From the NCBI RefSeq assembly GCF_000006565.2, contig NC_031478.1, positions 2,091,874-2,155,873 of the forward strand: a stretch of DNA of 64,000 nt, given 5' to 3'. A program made the translations under genes and the position numbers. Below are positions 41,818-59,065 of this stretch, in pieces (the stretch's first letter is position 1; each line of letters begins with the position of its first letter). A model generated the notes under the pieces. The model was not told the origin of the DNA and made no database searches. It saw nothing but the letters and a program-made list of their open reading frames with translations. This DNA comes from Toxoplasma gondii ME49 (Eukaryota > Apicomplexa > Conoidasida > Eucoccidiorida > Sarcocystidae).

Positions 41818-42541
41818 AAAACGACGTCACTGCAGTTGTTTCCAGCCTCGCATGCACAGGCGTGGCTACAGTGAGGAAATGCACAGTAATACACTTCAGC
41901 CGGAACCAGACGGAATTGCAGTCTACAACTCTGGATGTACGAACATTGCCGCTCTACCGTCACGACAGCTCCACCACCAGTCCAAGCACCGTTCTGTGAA
42001 TACTTGTTTCCATGTGGCTGAATGCCTTACCACACAGAACCAAACAGGCATCTGTTTGATCCCTTTGTGTATACACGTCTCCTACAGAAGAAGTGTCGAT
42101 CAAGAAGTCTCCCATGTGTCTGCAGCGCTCAGCTTTGTTTCTCTCCACTTGCTCATTTTTCCGCTGAGACTCCGAATTCCTTTCTGTGTTTCCCTTCCCT
42201 AGACCCATGGGCACTCCTTTGCCGATTGTTCTTGAGCCGGCACCTGATTTCTTTATTCTGAGTCACAGAGCAATAGTACAGTGGCCTCGCGTACTCGCAG
42301 AACCTCTATGCTACTTGCGGAATTGCGCTTGGCGTAAGTGTCTCGGAGGTTGTTGTGGTGGTGCTTAGAGCCCCCAGGACGCCCATGCTACACTCCTGAA
42401 CTTGCGTTCAGCAGGTGCATCCAAGACAAGGTGTTCCGTTGTTCAAGGTTGTCTTCCTTTGAGCACTGCATCTGTGGTGTACCTGCCACTATGCGAGTTC
42501 AACCACGTGTTAGTCTACCCAGATTTGGAAGCAAGCTTCTC
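41818..42541. other. Convergent intergenic region
   Basis: It lies between the stop of the TPR gene (+) and the stop of the coiled-coil gene (-). It must carry both 3' ends. A frame at 41,738-42,202 overlaps the last TPR exon in another frame and looks fortuitous. Confidence 0.55.
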
Positions 42542-45500
42542 TCACTTGGCTGTCTCTTTCTTTCCATAGTAATCTTCTAGTTGCTTGCGAAGGAATTTGC
42601 TCCGCAGCTCCCGCTTCCTCTCCTTTTCTTTGAGGTAATTTTGGTTTTCGATCTCCCGCTGCTTCTTTTCTTCCAGTTCCTTCAGTTTGGCGTCCAGTCT
42701 GCGTTCCCTGTACTCTTCTATGGCGAGCATTTTAGCGACCTGATTGCGGATGATAGAGAGTCAATGATGGAACGATAATATCAGCAAAACATCGTCGGTC
42801 CTTATAAGCCGTTTCTAGGGATATTTACGTTGATTTTCGAGATCGGGTAGCGTGTACAGGGTCAGTGACAGTGCCACTGACGGCGTTGCTGTTTCATTGA
42901 TTGAAAAACAGAAATGTTCCACCAATTAAGTCCTTTTCATAGAATCATGCGAGGACGACTCCGAGCGCAGAGGATTTCCCTCATGATGGCAAAAAATGGC
43001 AGGAGTATTCAGGTCAGGAATGACGAAATGAAAAAGCCCTAAAACGAGAGCTTGTGACTCCACAGCAATCTTCTGGATGCCTGATCACTACCGTAAGGAC
43101 TCTTTAGACAACACGTGCTCACCTGGGCAGCCTCGATTTCCTTGCTTTTCCGCTTGCTCTCGACGGACTGCAAACACATCCGGGAGATAGCAGCCATTAA
43201 CTCGATTTGCACTAACGCGGTCTGTTTCTTCGCGATAAGAAAATGTGGTAAGATTAACTGGGTGTAATGCCTCCTTTTTAAACCACGCAGCAGCTAAATT
43301 GGGATACGGGACTGCAATCATGTCCACATCATGTCCGTTGGACCCTTCTATCTTCCGTAAATTGATTTCCAGTAGTCATGGAAATTTCTCCATCCAGCTG
43401 GCATGTCCATGAACTATCTCGCACGCAGATGTGCGACGTATTTTCCAGGATCAACTTGATTGCAGCTTCACACGTCAGACGAACAGATTTAATTGCCAGC
43501 CTTCCCTCAGGATTGATAGCGACAGTAAAGAGAAGTCTTGGGTTATGCAGTGTTAGCACAAGGGCATCTCGACTGTTGGTAGCCTACGGCTACATTGTCA
43601 AAAATCTTTGTTGTGTCTGACAAGTCCATAATTTTTCCTGCAAACAGTACCAACCTCCGGCCGTTGGCTTTTTATGAAGGTACAACAACTCCATCTCAGT
43701 AGCAGTGGCAGGAGAAATGGCAGACAAAAAGAGCGGTGAGCTCCTACATCTATAAATAGTCTGTTAACCTCCCCAACATGTGGCCTCTTTCGCCTCTTTG
43801 CCGTCCTCAGGGCACACGAAGGCTTTGAACGTTATCACGTAGGGCTCTTTCTAGTAGTAAGATCATTGCCTGGGGAATCAGACGTTTTGAGGTCAACCTG
43901 CAAGCGATTTAATGGTTCTGCTTCAATGTGCACTTTCCTTCGCGAGCTTAAGTTCTATGTTACCTCCATTGCGACCTCCCGGTCACGTCTGTAGCGTTCT
44001 GGAAGACAGCCAGCAAACAACATATCGCAGAGGTAGGCGGCTTGGTCTCTCGCACCACCATCAGACAGTGCTGCAGCGGTGAACGGCGACTGTACAAGGT
44101 CACCGGCAGGCTGATTTCGTGGGAAACCGGACAATCCCTGTGGCGAACGGAGCTGAAGGGGTTCAAGAAGAGCCTCTTGATAGCTTCGTTTGAACCCTGG
44201 CTGCTTATTAGCAATAGAGAAACCCGACGGTAACGTTGACGACGTGTTTTTCTTCACGGTAGGAGACGGCAGTGTTGCCTGAGGTGGCCGGTACTCGCCA
44301 AAATCACTATTTCCTTGGATTCCGCCTTCTGCCACTGCTTTGCCACGTCCAATCTGGGCGGCAGCGGATCTTCTTTTTGGATCCTTCTGGGGCAAAAGGA
44401 TTTGAATTGGTGGTGGTTCTGATTGCTGGTCGCGGGGAGATCCCCCAATAAGTCGGGCTGTCGCTGGCCGGCTACATGGCGAGCATGTGGCACCGCCCTC
44501 TCGTTCGCTGGCCACCCCTAGTGGAGACGCATCTAGGCAAGCAGCGCGAGACGGTGGCAACAAAGAAAGGCCGAATTCGCTCAAAGCACTAGTAAGATTC
44601 GCTTCCAGCGACCGGGTGTAGTAAGCGGCTGCTGAGGAGCCTCCTTGCACGTTTTGTGCTTCCAGAGTTGATGGCTCATATTGTCCAGAGAGAATCATTT
44701 CGTTCTGGTAGTGATGGCTTGTTTCCCCACATGGGAGAGGAAGCGTGCAGACGCAGCACCTTCCCAAAAAGGGGAGCCGACATGATGCGTTGTTTGCGCA
44801 TGTCTTGACAGCCTTACTAAGCAGGACCAGAGTGAACGGTTCCAGGAGGCTATCGCCGACGATTTTTAACATTCCACGCCTCTGTAAAGTAGTTCCAAGG
44901 AACAGTGCAAGACTCGAACTTAAAGTGATGCATCAATGACCAGTAAAATCCTAGTAAACCGGCAAATCCCACAGACTCTTATAGGAGGCATGGGATAGAC
45001 TTGTTCGGCCATGCTTCACCTTCAACGTATAACCAAAAGACTTCCCTTCGTCATCATCGTCATTGCCACTTTTATCGGATGAACAGTGTGGCCGGGCACA
45101 TGTTCCTTTTTCCTCTAGGATATGTCTATCAAAAGGGCAGGTGGCCTACCTGAACCAGGCTGATGAGCTGCGGAGTGAGCCCCTCGCACGGCATTTTAAT
45201 GAAAGCATCTTTCCCCTGAACGTTCAGAAGCAGAACACTTGGAGAGACACCTGAGGACACGCGCAGCTGCTGTTGCCCTCTGTGCACCGGTTGTTTTACA
45301 ATCGACAATGGTGAGCTGTCAGCGTACGAACGGTATCGCCTGCCTCTACTCCGGCGGTCGCCTCCTGTTCTAGTTGGTAGCGAAACAACGCTCGTTATCT
45401 ATTTCGGTCAACAAGCTTGGAATGCCGTAGCTCAGCTTAAGCAAGTTCTAGAAGAAGTGATCCTGTTTCCCGGCTACAATACACTCGAGAATTTGACAAC

Positions 45501-45923
45501 TGCTTGCGAAAGAATCAACCAGCGCGCAAAAGTGGAGATGTGGTGTATGTGATTGTAGTTACAACATATACAGGTATACGGTGTCAGATGAATTATCGGA
45601 AAGTCTGGTGAAACACTTGAAACGGAACGTTGCAGGCGTAGTGTAGCTTGTGAATGCTCACCGGATTCTGGAGAAGAGGTCGAGCGTGAACCAAAGGGAA
45701 CGGAACGAACGGAGGCCAGCCTCGTTTCTGAAGTGCTACTCGGAGGATTCTGGTCATAGCATATGGCAAGGACATTATCTCGTGCCGCATATGTACTTAT
45801 GCTGATGTCACCAGACTGGCGAGATATGAGTGAGAAGCGTGCCGTTGGGATAACGCCGCCGGTGCAACCATTGTAGCAGAATAAGATCAATAACAAAGAA
45901 ACGTAGAGATGCACTGTACGCAT
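42542..45923 (-). CDS. Coiled-coil protein with signal-peptide-like N-terminus (5 exons, 545 aa)
   Basis: Exons on the minus strand are 45923-45662, 45364-45150, 44881-43964, 43167-43123 and 42739-42542. Phases 1, 0, 0, 0 agree and the sum is 1,638 bp. The ATG at 45,923 begins MRTVHLYVSLLLILFCYNGC, which reads as a cleavable signal peptide or membrane anchor. Exon 2 has an ordered-looking stretch (PSVLLLNVQGKDAFIKMPC). Exon 3 begins with a hydrophobic, cysteine-rich segment (about 44,730-44,880), then a Ser/Pro-rich linker. The last 90 residues are a highly charged coiled coil beginning at RYRRDREVAMESVESKRK and ending YYGKKETAK. There is no internal membrane span. It may enter the secretory pathway. 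The start lies only 214 bp after the stop of the kinesin-like gene on the same strand, so exons 2-5, perhaps with part of exon 1, could be the tail of that gene instead. Confidence 0.55.
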
Positions 45924-46137
45924 AATTCCACAGTGTGTTACTATGGTCTCCACCAGGAGGAAAGATGGATGCGGCAGATCAAGCCTAGCGAGCCATTTTT
46001 CTAAAGAGGATTGGTCAGCACAGGCACTGAGGAGAAACTGCCGAGCGTTTACAGATGATTCAGCAAGACGTGTACAGAAGCGTCTGTGAGCGCGAAAGGA
46101 AATACGTTTGTAACTTCTCGAACTAAATATGGTTCTC

Positions 46138-49100
46138 TTAGACTGACTTCAGCTCTCTCCTCAGACTCTCTAGATTATCCAGATGGCACTCCGTAATGCG
46201 TGAACTCGCCACGGCGGGAAGGTCCAGCGTGAGACGCAGCCTCTCAATTCTGTTTTTCAACCCAGTCACTTCCTCGTCGAGTTGTGTTGCGAGGTCGTAT
46301 TGCCTGCCAAGATGACACCAATGAACTTTTCGGGGGGCTATAGCAAGTCACCTGGACAAGCATGAAACGGGGTGACAGGAGACTTAAAATCAAGTTTGAG
46401 AACAGAGACAGCAGTTCACAACGTATCGTCCACCACCTCTGATGCTGGCTCACGACGTTTTCTCCCGGGAGAGGAAAAATCGAGATCGGCCGCGATTGTG
46501 GTGGACGCGCAGTGAGGTGGTATGTTCGACAGTTCATGTAAACACTACTCTCTGGACAAGAAAACTTCCTTTGTTGAAGATGACACAACGCCCGGTTGCA
46601 ACAAATTTCAGAGAACCACGTGAAGGCCGTACTCACGAAGGCTTGTTTGGTATGGCTTCCATTGTCTTCAGTAGCCTGCGTTGGACATTCAAGCCGGTTT
46701 CCGCAGTGCATTGATGTAGGAAATAATTAGCGAATTTGATTCACATCAATTGCGTCGTTATTTCCTGTGAGGCAGTTCGATAACGAAAAGCGTCTTTCTT
46801 TCGTTTTTTGAATAGCCAAGATTTATGAGCCCCTTCAACAAATTTCTCTGATTTTCTCGTCATCCTCTTGTCTGTCTCTAGTGAAGATCTGGCAGCTTCT
46901 CCGACGGCAATTGAAGTATTCATACAAGGAGACACAATGTGTTGCAGATAGGGTAGCCTCTAGTTCGCCGAGCTCATGCAGTTACTTACCTGATCAGGTG
47001 GTCAGCTTCTGGACTGCTGACATCAGACACAGGAACTGTTCCGATCACAGCAGTTCTCCAAGATTCGTTTAGAAAAGTTTCCTGTGCATACAATACCACA
47101 CAGTGCCTTCTGCTGCCGATACATGAACCAGCAATCAAGAATTAAAATATCCAAAAACCCTCTACTGAGCGATTACTCCGATAGTATTTGCTGTCGGGCC
47201 TTTCAAGCCGTTATGCGATCTTCTTAAAAGGCATACTTGCCTTCAGAACTGTCCTGAGAATACCGCAGTCGCCGTCAGCCTGCAAGAGCAATCAAGTGGG
47301 GACAGTCTGGACACAAGTGATACTCATATTTGGAGAGCGATCTAGAAAAACACAAGGTTCGTGTTACCGACAGGTTCTGTTGTAATCGCTGACCATGAGT
47401 GGAGTTGGCGCTCCGTCACCACGCAGGCTGCTCAACGTTCCGGGGAGAAGAGACTCGAGTAAAGTGAATATTGCATTTCTTGAAAGCCTTATGTCGTTTG
47501 CTTCTTCTGGAGAGCTTCCGTCGCTTGCACAAAGCGCGCTGCAACACAAGATAATCTCCACGACGGTCGTGTCCGGGGGCATTGTTTTACGCGGTGGGAG
47601 TAAACGAGCAGCGCTGCGAATGTGGAAAACTAAGAATTTGGATGATTCAACGCACATCTCCGGAGGTGTCCTTCATCGTTCCACAGAGCGACACTGCATG
47701 TCAGAAAATATTCCGTTACACCTCCCTAGGTGATGTAAAAGTTCTCTGAAAACTCATGGATCGCAGAGCTGTACGAAACATGAATATAACGTCCGCTCCA
47801 GTGTCTGCTTCTGGCCTTGCACGATTGGTGTGTTCTGGTGATGTTGTTTACTCGATCGACATGCTTTGCAAGTTCTTTCTCCTCACTCTGTATCGCGAGT
47901 GTGAGAAGAGAGATCTAGAAAAACCAAGCGCCCTCGTTGCAATTCATTTGTACCCCGGTCCTTTCGCTCGATGGTAAAAATCACAATGCGATGAGGCGGT
48001 GCCCGTCTGATATTCTCTTCGACGCGATGATCGAGCTCTGGTTGCGATTCGCTTTGTCCACAACGGTCTGCAACAACATACGGAAAGAACAATTTATGCA
48101 CCCTAACCGCATGTGGTATGCTGATTGTCTCATGTGTTCGAAGAGCGGGTATAAAAGTTTTGGGAAACAGAGATATGTTTCCCCACACAAACGATGGCAC
48201 AAAGCTCTTTTGGCGTTCGAATTCTCCTTTTCCCCTCACGTGCAATGATTGGCTTACGTGCGCTGGCGATGAAAATCCTCGCGAGGGAATCCATAGAATC
48301 AATCAGCCATTCTGATGCTCCGCGAAAGCGTATGGTGGATGGGCCGTTAGTGCAGCCTGGAGGCTGCTCTAGCTCACAGAGCGCATCACCTCCAAGCGCG
48401 TCGCGCATTTCTCCATGGGAAATTTCCAAATACGTAACGCCTAGTTCCGAGGATTCGTGTACTGTTAGTGCATTATTATGTAGCTGTTCCAGTAGCCACC
48501 TGTCAGTTCACCCAGTGCACAGGAAGGCGAGAGTATAATTCGAGTTGCAGGCATAGACCAGGATCATGTAGTAATGCTTGTCGAGTTCCTTATATGTATT
48601 TACCTCACTGCGCACTCTGGATCATACGAAAAGAGTTCACTGGAGGTACTAGGAAATAGGATTTCGCGTTAGGCCTTGGGAAAACGACTTTCGAACCACC
48701 AACGTATCTTGGTACAAAGGCACTCACAAACCTGACATCAGTGTCCATACGAACGTATGCAACAGAGGTGTTTGCCTACGTCTTCACGTTTGTGTGCAAG
48801 AACAGTGCGCAAGTGCAGGATTCGATGTATGGTGAAGGTGATATCGTCCACTTGTTCGTGGAATGTTTCGGGAGGAGCGTCAAAATGATCAGGTTTGTGC
48901 TGATATGTCGTTGGCATGTCATCTTCTATGAGGAGTATTGTGAGCTTGAAGTTTGCACTGAGGTTGCGCAAAATGATGGTAAAACAAACGTACTTCCCAG
49001 TCTCGAAAACCAGGCCTCCCCGATCTTCAGATGTGAGGGCATCATAATCCGAACACCACTCATCATTTTCGCCTGAAGAGTTCTGTTTGATCGCTTTCAC

Positions 49101-52100
49101 GATGGTAGCAAAAGCTTGTCCTAGGAAGCGGTGAGTTTCCTCCGCGCCTGTGAAAAGTAACTAATGATGGGCAAAACGCGGCGTTAAGCTTAAGCACCCG
49201 CTTATGTAATTCTCGCTTCAACCAGACTGCGAGGCTAGAACATCTCGTTTTCTATTGTTAGCACGAAAACCGTGCCTATTGGGGGGTGGGATCACAGACA
49301 CATTCCTTGATTGACTATCGTGACACAACACAACAGTCTCGATGATTCCCCGTTGATATGGGTTGCAGTATTACCTCGCATTCCCAGTAACAAGCAGCAA
49401 CCGTCGTAGCCGTTCAACGCGGAGTCCACAGCATCCTTAATCGACTCGAAAATTAGACTTGGGCTTGACTCCGTCCCCAATACTAGGCTAGGCAGATTCC
49501 TGCCAATGTTCGTAGCAGGGAGCATAAGCGTATGTTTTCAACGAAGCAGTAATGTTGCTAGCACATCCATGTCTTCGGCAGAGACAACGCACACGAGCGT
49601 GATATGGAAAATGTCTATAAACATTTAACACGTATCTCTATGCTTGAGGTGATGACAAGGAGATACGGGTAGGATATGGAAACATTTTTGTCTGTTCTAA
49701 TATTCTGGATTGACAACAAACATATACCCACAGTCACCATATGACTTGAAACATCCGATCATGGTGGCCTCGTCGCCGCTCCAGCAGAGGCCCGTCTTTG
49801 GTGATGGTCATCCATGTATTCCTGATCAAGTTGACAGCCTTCATTCACTAGTCTAGTCACGTGTGGTGCATGTTAAAATCTTCACTGGACTTGGATCGGT
49901 TTGTCTAAAAGACTCAGGCCCATAGTAATTGTTCTGTCCATGTCGATGAAAAAGTGTCTGTGTAGATAGTCTGCAGCATAATGTTTTGCTGATGCAGTTT
50001 TAGCCCAAACAGAAATCATGCTGGAAACTGAGCCATGCCTACGAGCTTCAAATTGCACACCTGCTCACTCACATGATAAAGCTGTCATGAATTTTTGAGC
50101 TTGTTACTTTAGCCTCTTCCTTAGTTGGGCCTTCGGTGCCGCTGTTTGAAAACCGGCACACGACCCGAGTGAAACACGTTTTTTTGTCCATAATTGGCTG
50201 CAAGCATCATGCTTGGCAAACGAGTGATTAACACCCACTTCTCACACACGACCAGCGAGGGCAGCCTGCGGCATGGTTGTTTACGTCCAACTACCAAGGG
50301 TCGTGCATTTCTGCCAGCACGTGAGTACAGTGAATTTCTATAGTCACTCCATGCACGGAGGCATTGGCATCATTAGCCTTAACTGTGCAGGACACTACTG
50401 CTGTCCCTCTGAGAGCACAGCAGAGGAAGCATTCGCCCCCTTCTTATTTGGGGAAGACCATCAGCTTAACACTGTTTTCCTTGTTTATGCGAATAGCAAA
50501 AACACAGATCGAGGAGTGGGGTGGAAGCCTTAGTCGCCAACATACAAAGTGATGTTGCACGCTTGCTGTGCAGAGAGTATAGGAAACAATGTGCGTGTTG
50601 CTGAGTTAACATTTTAATGAAAATTCTTCACATCCATATGTAGCTAAAACCGACGCTTTGGTCAATCATCTCTACCATCGCGAGCTCTTATTGTGGGGAC
50701 TGCCGCCTGGCGTCCCACCAGCTACATTGGTGAACTATGAAATGAGGTACGCACACAAGTTGCACATTTTGTCTTGGAGAACAGGTTCTGCGCAGTTCCA
50801 TGTCCCTATGTTGTAAAGCTTTTTGAATAGAGTCGATGTCGTTTGTTTCTCAGTGAGGAACACTGGATTCGTTTACGACGCACAAGGTCCCGCAGATGTG
50901 GGACGTGGAAAAGGGGTCCGGTAAAAAACAACAAGGAATGATGCGCAGCCTCTGGCACTTCCCCCTCTACTTCGACGCTTAAGACACCGTTTATGTATAG
51001 AAATTAGTTGTTCCCTCAAAGGTATATAAGCGTAAGAATTTAGACTGCTGCAAGAACGGTGTGCATGCGTCCATTCAGCTGTTCGCCGATCGGGTCTGAC
51101 GCTGTGACAGCCTAAACACTGGCCCAGCGAATTAGAAGCCACATCATACGAGTGACAAAAGGGGGAAACCTCACTGTCGTCAGGCCTACGAGCTTCCAGA
51201 TGAACTGTAGAATCCAACAGTCTAGAAGCTAGAAAACTGTCCCCGCCGCGGGCAAAATGCCGAGAAAACAAGACTGTGGTAGTGACTGATGTCTAGCTTG
51301 GAAAACAATAGCATTCCTGCTTGTTCACACCGTGCTGTCTCCCGTCATCCTTTGCCTACCATGTCGGTCGGTAAATACGTGTTCATCTGCACAGCAGACT
51401 CATGAACGTGTGCGTCCCTCGCTTCCTAGACGGTGTCAAAGCATGTTTTGCACTTACTGAAACCCTCGTTACTTGCTGCGTAGTCTCTGAAAAAAGGAGA
51501 CTCTGCTGAAAATACAGCTCGTTTACGCTTCATGTGTTCTAGCTGTTGTGGCGCCACACTCCACGCGTGTACTGGGGATGCGGTTAGCGGTGAATGGTCG
51601 TATCTGAAATCGGCAAATCCAGCTGTGACGGATGCTTCTAGCACTTTAATACAAAACGGAAGCCCTCATGCAAAAAGAATCGACCACTTCATATTATTTC
51701 TTCTTGACATGAAAGCACCAGCATTAAACGAAGAAAAATGTTGTGAAGGAACAGCCCGAGTTGTGAATAATTGAGACATGAGATAAGCTGAAACTGACCT
51801 ACATGGTAGCCGCTGAACCTTGGCACCACCAGGTGACTGAAACTCGTGATCATATTCCTGCTTTAGAGACAATGGGAACTCCTCTACCTGCTGAAAGTCT
51901 CAGCTCTCCTACCCATCAACAGTTACAAAAAGAACCTGAGGTCGTGGCAAATCGATACGCACAAAATGCAGTGACTCTTGCCACAGCGTCGATAACCTGT
52001 TCGACGCGCTATAGAACGGATAGATCCTTTTGATTCTCCACTGCATTCATGCTGGCATCAATAGCGACAACAGGTGGTTATTTGTGATGTTTCGGATAGC

Positions 52101-52480
52101 ATAAAATAGGTATCAACACGCAATGCCGTCCTTACACCGGGAAAGATATTCACCTTGCAAAATCATGAAGCCTAAGTATTTATGCTCATTTCTGCATCAA
52201 TTAATTATACATGAACCTCTCTTTCTACTTTGCTGCAATGAGAGTGTCGGTACCCGTTCTTGACACCTGCGGGAGATAACAAAAGGCAAGCACGGTGAGA
52301 CCCGCCTCACCGCATGCATCATAATGGTATACGAAGGTTTACTGCACACGGTGTTGCTCAGGTACAACAGAGGCGACAGCAAAGATAGTGAATGCAGCAC
52401 GATGGACACATTGCGAGACCATTGCGCTGGAGATCTCGTTTGGACTTGTGATTGTGGCCTTTGAAGAAAACTGTCGCCAT
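46138..52480 (-). CDS. Divergent kinesin-like protein with degenerate nucleotide-binding motifs (16 exons, 669 aa)
   Basis: Exons, minus strand: 52480-52420, 52266-52211, 51890-51803, 51643-51458, 51228-51120, 50141-50073, 49499-49375, 49120-48994, 48775-48728, 48499-48258, 48067-47887, 47613-47368, 47112-46990, 46888-46745, 46675-46637 and 46303-46138. Every phase agrees; total 2,010 bp. The ATG sits in CGAAAATGGCG. Motor landmarks occur in canonical order: first strand (STVHLEARRPDD), the segment before the P-loop (IKDAVDSALNGYDGCCLLLG), the EIYNE region (VTYLEISHGEMRDAL), the IFTI strand, the switch II strand (GRLVFLDLSS), and the relay and late helices (SRNAIFTLLESLL; TFLNESWRTAVIGTVPVSD). 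The P-loop GxxGxGKT reads GMRGQAFA, switch I NxxSSRSH reads NIRRAPPH, and DLAGSE reads DLSSHT. A basic linker and short coiled coil (DEEVTGLKNRIERLRLTL) end the protein. It probably binds microtubules or partners without ATP-driven motility. Exons 5, 9 and 15 are the least certain. Confidence 0.68.
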
Positions 52481-53653
52481 TTTCGAGATTCGTCCGTGAG
52501 AGTCGGCTGTGCCAGTCCACACGGCCTCTACTGACCCCTCCACAGCTAGGGTACACCTTATTCTCAGCCTGATGCACATTTACTTCCTGTCATGAGGTGC
52601 ATGCATACCAAAAATGGAGCAGCTGAATGAGACACACGCAGCGGTAACAATTTTTGAAACTATTTTTGACCTTCTACTTCTTTCGATCGCGTTCTGCATT
52701 CAAAAAAAGCCCGGCAAGTTTTTAGTGTAATCTCGAAACAGCGGAAAGCGGTTCGCCCGCTTGCAAAGGGATGCGCTCGCCGCTTTCCCTGTCCTGATAC
52801 CCTGCTGCATGCAGTGCCGGATTAGCGTTAGTCGTCGCAGTCAGTGAACAGTCGCCGTTGGAATACCAGCATTTTCCCATGCAACGTAGTCCGTCTTACC
52901 AGCAAAAAATGTGACGCTTCAGAGTCACTTGAAATATGCCGTAATCACATCATCATCAGTATCTACTGCGTCCTTAAGCGAGGCCCTGTAGATCTCGTGC
53001 ATTTGTTACGAGCTATGTCTTCACAGTTGTGGCACACAATGATCTCTCTACACAGACTCTTGTGCTGACACGTTAAATATTTGCAGTGACATAAGGACCT
53101 GCAATAGAGTTGGTGCTGCATAACCCTGTCCGGAAGTGTCTTTATGAGCTGCGGGAAGGAGGCAGCTATTACGTTACGTGGAACAACCATCAGGCCTGCA
53201 TGAAGCGATCACGTTCTTCTGTCACAGTCGTTGCATGCTTATCTGTACGCTGTGTTCCAACAGTTTTTGATATGGTCCTGTTTACCAGATGCGCGCTGGT
53301 CTTGTTCAACTCATGGCAGTGTAGAGGGCGCCCCAAAGCCAACATCCTCCAAAATTTTCGTCACAGGTTAAGAAGTCACTGCTCGGCACATGCTTTCAGC
53401 TGACATCTATGCATGATGCCGATTATCGTCTCGAAAGAACGTGTGCCTCCAATAAGCCGGAACTGCATACAGGCTAATGAGTGCGTGGGGTGCTTGCTCT
53501 GTTCGGCTGCTTCGTTGCTGTAGCGACTGGTGAACTGCAAGGCTTTCAATCTGGTATGCACACGGGGGGACATCGTCGCTGTTTCAAAGCTGGTTGTGTA
53601 TTCGCTTTTTTTCTGCGTCTTCTGTTCGTGTGCGGTCCACCAAATTCAAGAAG
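52481..53653. promoter_or_regulatory. Divergent intergenic region between kinesin-like gene and PSMD9
   Basis: The 1.17 kb lie between two head-to-head ATGs, so promoters and 5' UTRs of both genes lie here. Open frames are short and scattered. No core element can be assigned by eye. Confidence 0.6.
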
Positions 53654-55258
53654 ATGGCGGAACTGCTTGAGAAGCTAAATGTTCTGGTGGAGAAACAGAA
53701 AAAGATGGAGGAGGAAATGGAGGCACTTGCAGACTACCTCACCCAGCCAGGTAATTTCATTTCTTCATGAAACACTGACAGTTGTGCCCCAATAAACTGC
53801 TTGTTCATTCGAAAAGTCTTCGTACCCAGCTGCAAAGCGGTGGTGAACCAGGTAGTACATCACTTAGCTGCGATGGAGGTATGCCTCTTACTGTGAGCTT
53901 CAGTACCTTCGCTTGACATTTGGAAGATAAACGAGACAGAAAATCCGACCAAATATTTTCAGGTATTTTGGAGTTAATGTTAGCACCAACTTATTCGTAG
54001 AAAGTCGGTGTCCTCTAAGGCTGGAGAAGCGTGGGGGCTGGAGTGCCGTAATTTTACCCACATGCATAAGCCCGGTTCGGATAAGCTCAGGAGTGATAAT
54101 TTCTGGGAGAATTACGTGCACTTCAGTTTGTATTGCCTCGTGGATCTTACGTTGTTCCTACAAGTCCAAAAATGGCGCCTTCTCTAGTGCAAGCCAAGAC
54201 TACTCTTGTCTCTCATTATGGCACTCTATTTTTGCCCAGGAATGCCTGGTTTGACTGGCGGGCTGGTAGACGACGAGGGTTTCCCGCGTGCAGATATCGA
54301 TATTTATGCCATTCGTGGTGCCCGCAACCGGCTGGCTATCCTTAAGACTGACTACAAAGAGGTCCGTTCTCAGATCGAGAAGGAGCTCTTTGCCCTGCAC
54401 GCCCAAGGCCCGGTGGCAGTTCCTCGCACGGGTTGTGTAAGCACAGGAGACGCTTTAAATGCAGCCTCGTTGTCCCCTGATTCGAACACTGGTGAGAGCA
54501 TGCAAGAGACACATGAATGGGACGCATTTTGTCGCCGTGTTAAGGAAGAGGTTTGCTCGTGTGAGATAAAAATAAATTGACAGATGAATTGTCATTGTCG
54601 ATTCTCTGGCCGGTGGTTATGCGATTGTTTACTTTCTTTCGACGCAAAACAAAGGCGCGCCAATATTCATAGCAGAGCACGAGATGTAGGCTGATGCAGC
54701 GATATTTCAAGCGTTGCTGTCGCAGAAGTTAAACCAGGTAGAGAACCCCATCGAGAGAAGTGAATGGGCACATTGTGCTGATGCCTCGTGCATGTTGCGA
54801 AAAAGCGGGGTGAGCGCAGTGTGTGAACTCAGTATCCAACTTCGTATCCCTGTTTTTGTTTGTGGCTTGCAGCACTGGAGGAAAATCCCTTCATTCCATT
54901 CGCGAAGATCAGTGAGCTGCATGAGAATAGTCCAGCGTCAAAAGCCGGTCTTCGTCTAGATGATCTCATCCTTCAGTTTGGTGCCGTCTTCATTCGCAGA
55001 AAAAGTCTGCCAGAACCGTCGGAAGGGGATAAACAGCAAGTTGCTGCTGATCCGGGAGGGGATAGACCCGGCTGCAGTAGTGTGGAGCAGGTTTTCGAGA
55101 GGCTTCCTCATGAAGTTGGGAACCACACAGGGGAGGAGATCGATATCACTGTCTTCCGCAATAATGCAATTCTAAATCTGAAGCTTATTCCTCAAACGTG
55201 GGAAGGCATGGGTCTCGTGGGATGCCGATTCACACCCGTAACAAAAGGGATGCTGTAA
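53654..55258 (+). CDS. PSMD9: PSMD9/Nas2 - 26S proteasome base assembly chaperone
   Basis: Exons are 53654-53750, 54240-54491 and 54873-55258; both introns (489 and 381 bp) are phase 1, giving 244 residues. The start is AAGAAGATGGCG. Exon 1 is a helical coiled coil (MAELLEKLNVLVEKQKKMEE). Exon 2 carries the family signature LVDDEGFPRADIDIYAIRGA, equivalent to 'lvD.eGyPRsDvDly.vR.aR' in human PSMD9, followed by a helix ending in LHAQ. Exon 3 is the PDZ-like domain (PFAKISELHENSPASKAGL, then LDDLILQFGAV) and the C-terminal strand ending MGLVGCRFTP. In yeast and human this protein binds the Rpt5 ATPase C-terminus and guides assembly of the 19S base. An insertion of about 30 residues in the PDZ domain (RRKSLPEPSEGDKQQ...) is the main difference from the human protein. 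Confidence 0.95.
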
Positions 55259-56218: not shown

Positions 56219-58372
56219 TTAAGATAAACTTTCTGTAATGCACGATGAGCGTACACTACCGTTATCGAAAGAGGTCATCCCAAGAACATAGTCTTTGCTA
56301 GGAGGCAGCTCAAGAGACTGGAAAAGTTCTAACATTTTCGAGCGAAGAAGTGAGTTAGCAGAGCGTAACTTGGAAATCTTCGACTCTAGAGTGTTGCGTT
56401 CGTTATCATACTCTCGTTGCATTTTCTGTCGTAATTCTTCTTCTTCTTTCATGAGCTGTATGGCTTGTTGTTCCTTAGCTTGGCTTTCTTGGGCAAGAGT
56501 GCGAAGCTTCCCTTCTGCTAGAGACAACTGTTCAGAGTACTGACGTTTTACTTCATCGATCTCTTTTTCATGTTTCCGGCGGATGCCTAGAAGCTCATCC
56601 TCGATGGAGGCGTTCCTGCCGTTTAGTTCGGTAATTCGTTCCTTGAGTGCATCAAGGGATGACTGTGCATGGCGTTTGACCTGCTCCTCAGATGCCAGTG
56701 CTGAGCGCACCTGAACAAGTTCCTGCTCTAAACGCTGTTTTTCATTCACTGCTGCTGATACTGTGTCTGCAGTTGTCACTTTCAAAGCGTCTACTTCCTC
56801 ACGAAGCTTATCCCTTTCTTTTTCGAGGCTTATCTTCGTCTGCTGAAGCTGCTGAACAAGAGCCTGATGAGACCTGGAAGCGGAGCGAAGCTCTTGTTGC
56901 GCCTGAGTTGCTGCAGCATCAGAAATCTTACATCGACGCTCCGCTGCTTCTGTTCGCAGAGTCAGATCCGAATTTGTTGTTGCCAAATCCTGAGTTCGTT
57001 GTCTCAGTTGCTCTACCTGCTGCTGAAGCTGGTTCGTGGCTCCTTCGAAGCGGTCATCCATCAAGCTTCTCTGAAGGACAAGCTCGCTCGCATGTTGCTC
57101 CCGGATTTTGTCGAGTTGATTCTTGACCACTTTTGCTGACGCTGAAAGTTTTTCCTTTTCAATCGCCAGTTCTTGATATTTCTGGTTGAGTTCTGAAAGG
57201 CTGTTCTTCACTTGCTCATTTTCTTGTTCTAAGGCACTCGCCTTCTCCTCTAAGTAGTCAATGATCTCTCGAGCCTTCTGTGTCTCCCGATCCGCATCCT
57301 CGTTTTCATGAGACAACTGCACAAAGTTATCCTGCATATCTGTGAGCTGATTCTCGAGGGCCTGAACCTGTAATTGTTTTTCTGCCTCTCTGGACTTTGA
57401 TGCTTCCTCGGCTTCCTGCGCTATCTGGCGTTCCTTGTTTAATTGCTGCTGCAGCATTGCGGTCTGATCCTCCAGTTGAGAGCACTTCGACCTAAGCGTA
57501 CTTAGCTCCCTCTCTTGATGTTCCTTACTAGCCTGCAAGCTGTCTCTTTCTTCGAGGAGCTCCTCCAGCTGAATCTTTGCCTCATTAAGCAACTGCTCCA
57601 AGGCTTTATTGTGACGCAGTGTTTCGCTGGCTGCGGCTTCTTGCTCCTCCGCCTCTACAACCTGAGAACGCAGAAGTTCCATGGTTTGTTCGCATTGCTC
57701 GACATGACATTTCATAAGGTGATTTTGCTTCAGCAGTACTTCATTTTGCTCCTTCGTTACGTTGTGTAATTCCTCAAGTTCGTCTTTTTCGTGCAGTAAT
57801 GCAACAATACTTTTCCCCCCAGGTTTCCCGTCGCTGTTCCCCTCTCCATCCCCAGCGAACAGCGCTTGAAGCTGAGAAGCTTTGCTTCGCACGTCGTTTC
57901 TCAGCGCTTCGTTTTCTTTTGTCAGCGTCATGACATTTTCAGCCAGAGCTTTGACATCTGTTTCCCGCCTGTCTAAAAGAGCCTGTTGGTCCTTAAGTCT
58001 TGTATCGTAAGCAGATATGAGCGGACACATAAGCTGCATGTCCAATGTCCAAGCAGGTAAAGGGATATCGTTGAAGCGTTCTACCCCTCGCACACTCTTT
58101 TCAGCTTCAATATGGAAGACTTCGGGTGCTGTGTTCGTGTCGATGGGGCGTTCAGCGGCTGTTCGAGGAAGATCCGAGTCCTGCTTCAGTTGCAAAGCAC
58201 GTAGTTCCTTTGTTACACGTTCGCTGTAGTCACGAAGGTCTGCGATTTCTTGCCTCAATCGCGCTAGGTGCTGCATCAGCTCAGGATGGTCGGATTTTCC
58301 CACCGCGGGCAACAGCTGGAGAGGAGTCCATTTCTGCTCCGGACGCTTGATGTCAACGGTATGACTGAACAT
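56219..58372 (-). CDS. Long coiled-coil protein (717 aa), probably centrosomal or cytoskeletal
   Basis: This is a single uninterrupted reading frame with its ATG at 58,372 (TCAAACATGTTC, A at -3). After about 40 N-terminal residues there is a first coil, then a less charged segment with PLISAYDTRLKDQQALL. From there almost 500 residues are continuous heptad-like Leu/Glu/Gln/Lys sequence without helix breakers, ending in a short Ser-rich tail (SVRSSCITESLS). The composition is that of rod-forming centrosome, basal-body or golgin-type proteins. No globular domain or membrane span is visible, so the family cannot be named. The frame stays open upstream of the ATG past an acceptor-like CTCTGCAG about 55 nt before it, so a small 5' exon is possible. 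The gene is co-oriented with its two right-hand neighbours. Confidence 0.85.
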   Translation of the reverse strand: MFSHTVDIKRPEQKWTPLQLLPAVGKSDHPELMQHLARLRQEIADLRDYSERVTKELRALQLKQDSDLPRTAAERPIDTNTAPEVFHIEAEKSVRGVERFNDIPLPAWTLDMQLMCPLISAYDTRLKDQQALLDRRETDVKALAENVMTLTKENEALRNDVRSKASQLQALFAGDGEGNSDGKPGGKSIVALLHEKDELEELHNVTKEQNEVLLKQNHLMKCHVEQCEQTMELLRSQVVEAEEQEAAASETLRHNKALEQLLNEAKIQLEELLEERDSLQASKEHQERELSTLRSKCSQLEDQTAMLQQQLNKERQIAQEAEEASKSREAEKQLQVQALENQLTDMQDNFVQLSHENEDADRETQKAREIIDYLEEKASALEQENEQVKNSLSELNQKYQELAIEKEKLSASAKVVKNQLDKIREQHASELVLQRSLMDDRFEGATNQLQQQVEQLRQRTQDLATTNSDLTLRTEAAERRCKISDAAATQAQQELRSASRSHQALVQQLQQTKISLEKERDKLREEVDALKVTTADTVSAAVNEKQRLEQELVQVRSALASEEQVKRHAQSSLDALKERITELNGRNASIEDELLGIRRKHEKEIDEVKRQYSEQLSLAEGKLRTLAQESQAKEQQAIQLMKEEEELRQKMQREYDNERNTLESKISKLRSANSLLRSKMLELFQSLELPPSKDYVLGMTSFDNGSVRSSCITESLS

Positions 58373-59065
58373 GTTTGAAACACTTGTGCCGTTTTCCGAA
58401 TCATTCGCCCGTTTTCGTCTGCAGAGGGATGCGTGGTGCGATACGCGAACACACTGCGCAACTGGACAAGCACGTCTAGATATGGAAAACGATGGGGATG
58501 TTGATTCAAAGTAATTCTACGAGTGAGTTTGTCTTTTCCACCAACAAACGGCCTCTCCACCTGTGTGACTGCGTCATTCCAGGACCAATTTTAATCCAAA
58601 AAACCTATGAATCGCTGTTAGGGCAAACAAACAGCACACCTAACAAAGTCCCGCATTCGCAATTCACTGTCGAGCCTCTTTCCCGGCTCCCTGGCGCAGT
58701 AAGTTCCAACAGTAATGCGCTTTCGCAGTTGAGGACTTTCCTTAAGCGTATCTACTACAAACTTGCTGACTACCCGCAGACAGTGTTACTCTTTTGAAGC
58801 CCACTTGCATTTTGGGCGTAACATTTTTTCCAAAACAGAACGCCATTTGATTGCCCGTGCTCATGGTCAAGTATCCGGGTTGGGAACTAGGCCTCAAAGC
58901 ATGGGGCTACCACAACCATCAACTTCGATACAGGAAAGCGATGCCACGACAGATTTTACGGTGGGGCCCGACAGGAGTGAAGCGCATGCAGCTAACTCCG
59001 AAGGCAATCTGAATTTCGTTTTGTTGCCAACAGCCCACAAAAAGGAGAATAAGTCCTCCCTCGGG
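58373..59065. other. Short intergenic region between co-oriented genes
   Basis: It should contain the promoter and 5' UTR of the coiled-coil gene and the 3' UTR of the membrane-protein gene. Plus-strand frames at 58,492-58,797 and 58,763-59,110 have no splice or family support. Confidence 0.55.

What the first reader, a model, noticed from the sequence alone, without database searches (positions are those of the whole stretch)
46138..52480. A kinesin fold with all three ATPase motifs lost: a likely pseudo-motor
Seen: the deduced protein keeps motor-domain landmarks in order (GYDGCCLLLG before the P-loop, YLEISHGEMRD, IFTI, LVFLDL, relay helix). Yet P-loop GxxGxGKT reads GMRGQAFA, switch I NxxSSRSH reads NIRRAPPH and switch II DLAGSE reads DLSSHT. 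Known: the P-loop Lys/Thr, switch I Ser and switch II Gly are needed for nucleotide handling in kinesins, and a few non-motile kinesins (Kif26/VAB-8, Cos2 types) have diverged there. Inference: this is a static microtubule-binding or scaffold protein in a coccidian, possibly with a specialised cytoskeletal role.
Basis: partly seen in the sequence, partly recalled or inferred. Interest (0 to 1): 0.78.

Follow-up and report, generated by a model that had tools for sequence, protein, structure and literature searches.

The report
Toxoplasma kinesin-like pseudo-motor gene
A Toxoplasma gene that public gene models show only in part appears to carry a kinesin-like head whose ATP-binding motifs are lost, so it is probably a scaffold and not a moving motor.

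Summary
The main point holds; the details need correcting. The minus strand holds a divergent kinesin head: the spliced model scores 35.5 bits against Pfam Kinesin (cut-off 29.3, E 7.2e-9). P-loop reads GMRGAEET, switch I NIRRAPPH, switch II DLSSHT. None of 5,053 donor-acceptor pairs tried restores GxxxxGK[TS]. The gene runs past 46138 to 42542: 14 exons, 855 aa, GT-AG introns. Relatives of the tail exist in T. gondii, Hammondia, Neospora and Besnoitia; those database proteins lack all or about half of the head and 0 of 5 match Pfam Kinesin. Hammondia shares the switch losses; its P-loop is not in its model. Of 19 other kinesin loci in this genome, 18 have a readable P-loop and all 18 keep the lysine. 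Best reading: an ATP-independent kinesin-fold scaffold of Toxoplasma and its kin. Microtubule binding is unproven, exon 1 is tentative, the head's fold could not be predicted here, and a relic head is not excluded.

The parts
50073..50191 (-). Exon 1 (tentative): start MDKKTCFTRVVCRFSNS, resembles kinesin strand 1 by eye; the RxRP motif would read RFSN
   Evidence: Open frame, GT donor, phase fits exon 2; no score of its own, adds 0.4 bits
49375..49499 (-). Exon 2: ends GYDGCCLLLGMR, first part of the P-loop
48994..49147 (-). Exon 3: opens GAEET, second part of the P-loop (GMRGAEET)
48258..48499 (-). Exon 4: YLEISHGEMRD
   Evidence: its end is in the Hammondia protein
47887..48067 (-). Exon 5: switch I NIRRAPPH and switch II DLSSHT
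   Evidence: in the Hammondia protein
47394..47538 (-). Exon 6: relay-helix region
   Evidence: in the Hammondia protein
46990..47081 (-). Exon 7: helix 5 / last strands of the head
   Evidence: in the Hammondia protein
46637..46675 (-). Exon 8: end of the head (helix 6), ...AIPNKPS; absent from the Hammondia model, so less certain
46148..46303 (-). Exon 9: neck-like helix
   Evidence: in Hammondia and Neospora proteins; helix in the Neospora model at pLDDT about 60-75
45662..45749 (-). Exon 10
   Evidence: joined to exon 9 in the Neospora protein
45150..45215 (-). Exon 11
   Evidence: in Hammondia, Neospora and Besnoitia proteins
43964..44881 (-). Exon 12: 306 open codons with a Cys-rich motif at 44800-44729 and a variable stretch
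43123..43167 (-). Exon 13
42542..42739 (-). Exon 14: long charged C-terminal helix and stop codon
   Evidence: helix at high pLDDT in the Neospora protein

Best explanation
The locus is a 14-exon T. gondii gene (its relatives in H. hammondi and T. gondii RUB carry the tag 225590). It encodes an N-terminal kinesin-derived head that can no longer use ATP in the kinesin way, a short neck-like helix, a conserved cysteine-rich motif, a variable stretch and a long charged C-terminal helix. Shown by computation: the head's homology to kinesins, the loss of the three canonical nucleotide motifs in the best-scoring splice form, and conservation of the tail in four genera. Inferred: that the head is translated and folded, and that it works as an ATP-independent docking or scaffold module held in a complex through its helices, as non-motile kinesins do. 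Not shown: that it binds microtubules.
For: Pfam Kinesin 35.5 bits over the cut-off. Own profile 34.7 for exons 1-8 of the final model; the earlier form beat 5,000 shuffles. P-loop, switch I and II changed; no P-loop rescue among 5,053 splice pairs, and no DLAG in six frames of 42000-53600. 18 of 18 readable P-loops among 19 other kinesin loci keep the Lys. One open frame over 14 exons with GT-AG introns. Head residues differ from Hammondia less (16 of 200) than intron read-through does (16 of 97), p 0.044. Neutral decay to 50% or 30% identity left 0 of 200 runs free of stops each.
Against: No transcript. No database protein holds the whole head. The six-frame PF00225 search missed the locus. 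Some splice choices were guided by kinesin resemblance. Exon 1 has no statistical support and the end of the head only weak support. The Hammondia comparison uses stretches picked by hand; head and tail do not differ significantly (p 0.39). The P-loop change is seen in one genome only.
Confidence: 0.55

Rival explanations
1. The head is a relic: its exons are no longer translated or are decaying, and the working product is the tail.
For: The T. gondii RUB, Besnoitia and P0005 database proteins have no head and the Neospora one begins at about the head's end. Head and tail diverge from Hammondia at rates that do not differ significantly, and the head is only marginally slower than intron read-through (p 0.044). 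Recent decay is not excluded: at 90% identity 35 of 200 simulated frames had no stop.
Against: One open frame through the head with GT-AG introns. At 80, 70, 50 and 30% identity 5, 3, 0 and 0 of 200 simulated frames had no stop, while the head is only 17-24% identical to the kinesins compared. Switch changes are shared with Hammondia.
Confidence: 0.22
2. The head still binds microtubules without nucleotide and serves as the non-catalytic partner of an active kinesin, as Vik1 and Cik1 do for Kar3.
For: Complete loss of the nucleotide motifs fits a non-catalytic partner; Vik1/Cik1 are a described precedent (passages of PMC4338441). A neck-like helix and a long helix could pair.
Against: Microtub_bd profile only 17.8 bits against a 27 cut-off. 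Basic residues of the loop 12/helix 5 region are mostly changed, on a weak alignment. The head is N-terminal here; in the Vik1 construct of that paper it follows the tail (residues 351-647).
Confidence: 0.15
3. It is an active but atypical motor that binds ATP with other residues.
For: The P-loop keeps Gly, Gly and Thr, and switch II keeps Asp-Leu.
Against: P-loop Lys, switch I SSRS and switch II AGSE are all replaced, while all 18 readable P-loops of other loci in this genome keep the Lys.
Confidence: 0.04
4. It is not a kinesin: the likeness comes from choosing exons that look like one.
For: Some splice choices were guided by kinesin resemblance. PF00225 in six frames did not find the locus at E 0.001.
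Against: The first hand-joined model passed Pfam's cut-off at once (29.6 bits); the later changes to exons 6 and 7 follow the Hammondia protein and that to exon 10 the Neospora one. Exons 2-6 score 31.9 against a best of 11.4 in 2,000 shuffles.
Confidence: 0.03

Closest known systems
VAB-8 / KIF26 (non-motile kinesins)
   Same: Kinesin-like head without a functional P-loop, non-motile (passage of PMC12646758)
   Different: No orthology shown; the tail here has no Pfam match and its relatives found here are all coccidian where the source is named
Vik1 / Cik1 motor homology domain (partners of Kar3)
   Same: Kinesin-like head lacking the elements needed to bind and hydrolyse ATP (passages of PMC4338441)
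   Different: Microtub_bd (PF16796) is under its cut-off; the head is N-terminal here
Costal-2 (Cos2)
   Same: Atypical kinesin that may have no motor activity (passage of PMC2867816)
   [quoted passage not shown] not shown here; sequences not compared
Kinesin-X3 and -X4 of Apicomplexa
   Same: Divergent kinesins enriched in Apicomplexa (passages of PMC9333250)
   Different: Their motifs were not compared here; X3 is described at the pellicle and X4 at axonemes of Plasmodium

Membership tests
Kinesin superfamily (by homology) | Match to the kinesin motor domain profile PF00225 over its curated cut-off | tested here: met
   35.5 bits against 29.3, E 7.2e-9, profile 48-308 of 327
Kinesin superfamily (by homology) | Kinesin fold of the head | not testable with these tools
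Active kinesin motor | P-loop GxxxxGK[TS] | tested here: not met
   GMRGAEET; no rescue in 5,053 splice pairs
Active kinesin motor | Switch I NxxSSRSH | tested here: not met
   NIRRAPPH, also in Hammondia
Active kinesin motor | Switch II DLAGSE | tested here: not met
   DLSSHT; DLSSQA in Hammondia
Active kinesin motor | RxRP motif of strand 1 | tested here: inconclusive
   RFSN in exon 1, which is itself tentative
Vik1/Cik1-type domain (PF16796 Microtub_bd) | Match to PF16796 over its curated cut-off | tested here: not met
   17.8 bits against 27
Vik1/Cik1-type domain (PF16796 Microtub_bd) | Pairs with an active kinesin and binds microtubules | not testable with these tools
   Needs protein work
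VAB-8/KIF26 | Orthology by tree | not tested
   17-24% identity to each of 22 kinesins compared, none of them KIF26; too divergent for a tree I would trust

The most novel reading that the evidence does not exclude
Toxoplasma and its relatives have kept a kinesin head stripped of all its nucleotide motifs as an obligatory non-catalytic subunit of a parasite-specific cytoskeletal complex, for example as the partner of an active kinesin, joined to a tail for which Pfam has no family.
Probability: 0.15. Interest if true: 0.72.

Novelty: new variant of a known kind. Interest (0 to 1): 0.52.

Why it matters
Few proteins with a kinesin fold and no ATP site are described, and they teach what the fold can do without fuel. 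This would be a coccidian example. The five database proteins that I found for the gene hold no head or at most about half of it and none matches Pfam Kinesin, so surveys of predicted proteins would miss it. The six-frame genome search with the Pfam model missed it too, which says where to look for more: in spliced sequence. If translated, it is an uncharacterised cytoskeletal candidate in an important parasite.

Tried and rejected
Candidate exon 47279-47241 with a GC donor: first included, dropped because the Hammondia model skips it and the profile score rises from 31.3 to 34.7 without it.

Open stretch 46083-45905 and further pieces down to 45750, present in the Hammondia model: first taken as exons, dropped because the Neospora protein joins exon 9 to exon 10 directly and the frames do not connect in this genome. 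A frameshifted gene, which I briefly considered, is not needed to explain it.

Longer form of exon 6: 28.0 against 31.3 bits. Two other N-terminal pieces: 33.7 and 33.2 bits against 33.9 with none and 34.3 with exon 1.

Leaving out exon 8 as Hammondia does: 33.3 against 34.7 bits; I keep it.

The full-length protein search, made with the older model, gave no hit.

Fold of the Neospora protein: mean pLDDT 44.9, pTM 0.23; no fold search was run on it. Rfam: 0 matches in the window. NCBIfam: nothing near a cut-off.

Codon-usage scores favour the modelled frame in 13 of the 15 exons of the older model, but the other frames are penalised for stops, so I give this little weight.

Paper searches: TGME49_225590 gave 0 papers; '225590' with Toxoplasma gave 9, of which 8 were listed, none about this gene by title; searches for inactive, degenerate or divergent kinesins with Toxoplasma listed nothing on this gene by title. 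led to two other divergent Toxoplasma kinesins, TGGT1_273560 and TGGT1_201230 (passages of PMC9436416).

Full report
What the window is. It lies in a 65.3 Mb genome of 1,959 contigs. The tail of the gene is 99% identical to a T. gondii RUB protein (TGRUB_225590, P0002) over 71% of the query, so I take the genome to be T. gondii; the strain is not known to me.

The gene. On the minus strand I joined exons by hand. A search with the tail found five proteins: T. gondii RUB (99% identity), Neospora (70%), Besnoitia (49%), Hammondia (88% over 20% of the query) and P0005 of unnamed source (35%). The Neospora protein fixed the junction of exons 9 and 10. The final model has 14 exons, 855 residues, one stop at the end and GT-AG introns only.

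Is it a kinesin? The head scores 35.5 bits against Pfam Kinesin, E 7.2e-9, over profile positions 48-308 of 327. My own profile has 22 rows, three copied from alignments of solved structures and 19 from this genome. The earlier form of the head scored 31.3 on it; of 5,000 shuffles 2,014 were listed, the best at 6.6; the reversed sequence was not listed. Without the dropped exon it scores 34.7. Identity to the 22 rows is 17-24% over the aligned columns. Support is strongest over exons 2-6: 31.9 against a best of 11.4 in 2,000 shuffles. It is weak at the end of the head: with the final exons 16 of 5,000 shuffles score as high for the last 54 residues and 76 of 5,000 for the last 85; with the dropped exon 80 and 242 of 5,000, without exon 8 72 of 5,000; earlier forms gave 42 and 27 of 2,000. 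Exon 1 alone was not listed and adds 0.4 bits, so it is tentative. The six-frame genome search with PF00225 gave 60 matches and none at this locus.

The motifs (the reference motifs are recalled and agree with the kinesins). Exon 2 ends GMR and exon 3 opens GAEET, so GQTGSGKT reads GMRGAEET; the Lys is Glu. NxxSSRSH reads NIRRAPPH and DLAGSE reads DLSSHT. Of 5,053 donor-acceptor pairs around the P-loop none gives GxxxxGK[TS] within 40 residues of GYDG. A scan of 42000-53600 in six frames found no DLAG, one SSRSY at 46124 (in an intron of the model) and one Walker-like GYRRCGKS at 51997 (upstream of the model).

Control. I grouped the 60 PF00225 matches into 19 loci by hand; one more match, on the small contig C718, has the same score and span as a C2 exon and was left out. 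A P-loop is readable in 18 of 19 (not in L030) and all 18 keep the Lys followed by Ser or Thr. DLAG is found in 18 of 19 by the motif scan; the miss is L025. A full switch I motif, allowing one change, is readable in 13 of 19 rows; the other six rows are cut, misaligned or empty there. So loss of all three is peculiar to this gene among the loci that I could read.

Is the head under selection? Against Hammondia the head exons differ at 16 of 200 residues, the tail at 8 of 152, and stretches that Hammondia's model translates but that are intron here at 16 of 97. Fisher tests: head against intron p 0.044, tail against intron p 0.007, head against tail p 0.39. The stretches were picked by hand from what Hammondia's model covers, so this is modest support. 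Neutral decay of another kinesin frame (346 codons, substitutions only, 200 runs each) left 35, 5, 3, 0 and 0 runs free of stops at 90, 80, 70, 50 and 30% identity. An open frame after so much divergence suggests that the protein was kept while its motifs were lost; recent decay is not excluded.

The tail. It has a neck-like helix, a Cys-rich motif (CANxASCRLPFxGRCCVCTLPLPC, kept in Neospora and Besnoitia, in P0005 with one Cys changed, and outside Hammondia's model), a variable stretch and a long charged helix. AlphaFold of the Neospora protein has low overall confidence (mean pLDDT 44.9) but a helix at 430-520 whose blocks from 441 to 520 have pLDDT 82 or more. Pfam found no family up to E 1 in exons 12-14.

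Mechanism. From the motifs I infer that the head cannot use ATP in the kinesin way. The most likely use is a docking or scaffold module held in a complex through its helices. In passages that I read, VAB-8/KIF26 are non-motile and lack a functional P-loop (PMC12646758), Vik1 and Cik1 carry non-catalytic heads (PMC4338441) and Cos2 may have no motor activity (PMC2867816). Microtubule binding is open: the Microtub_bd profile is under its cut-off (17.8 against 27) and the loop 12/helix 5 basic residues are mostly changed, on a weak alignment. A relic head with a working tail is the main rival.

Why it may have been missed. Of the five database proteins, P0002, P0004 and P0005 hold no head, P0003 begins at about its end, and P0001 holds part of its second half; 0 of 5 match Pfam Kinesin. 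The 2010 kinesin survey left its 166 most divergent sequences out of its tree (passage of PMC2867816). Searches for the gene tag found no paper about it, in a library of open-licence papers only.

Limits. No transcripts, no DNA of other coccidians and no fold of the head were at hand. The P-loop change is shown in one genome only.

Noticed in passing
window 54188-55258, + strand: Neighbouring gene that looks like the proteasome chaperone Nas2/PSMD9: Nas2_N at 70.2 bits in 54188-54580 and a PDZ match below cut-off in 54827-55258. The name PSMD9 is recalled.
   Followed up: partly
L025 (G000:C11:682500-688500): Another very divergent kinesin locus: keeps GGKGSGKT, but no DLAG or switch I motif was found by the scan.
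   Followed up: no
window 44800-44729, - strand: Conserved Cys-rich motif CANxASCRLPFxGRCCVCTLPLPC in the tail, possibly metal-binding (guess); no Pfam match.
   Followed up: partly
P0002 (TGRUB_225590) and P0001 (HHA_225590): Public models of this gene look wrong: the RUB model starts inside exon 12 and ends in read-through of the intron after exon 13; the Hammondia model translates stretches that are intron here and skips most of exon 12.
   Followed up: yes
window 56219-58516, - strand: Open frame of 765 aa, rich in charged residues and coiled-coil-like by eye, with no Pfam family over its cut-off.
   Followed up: no
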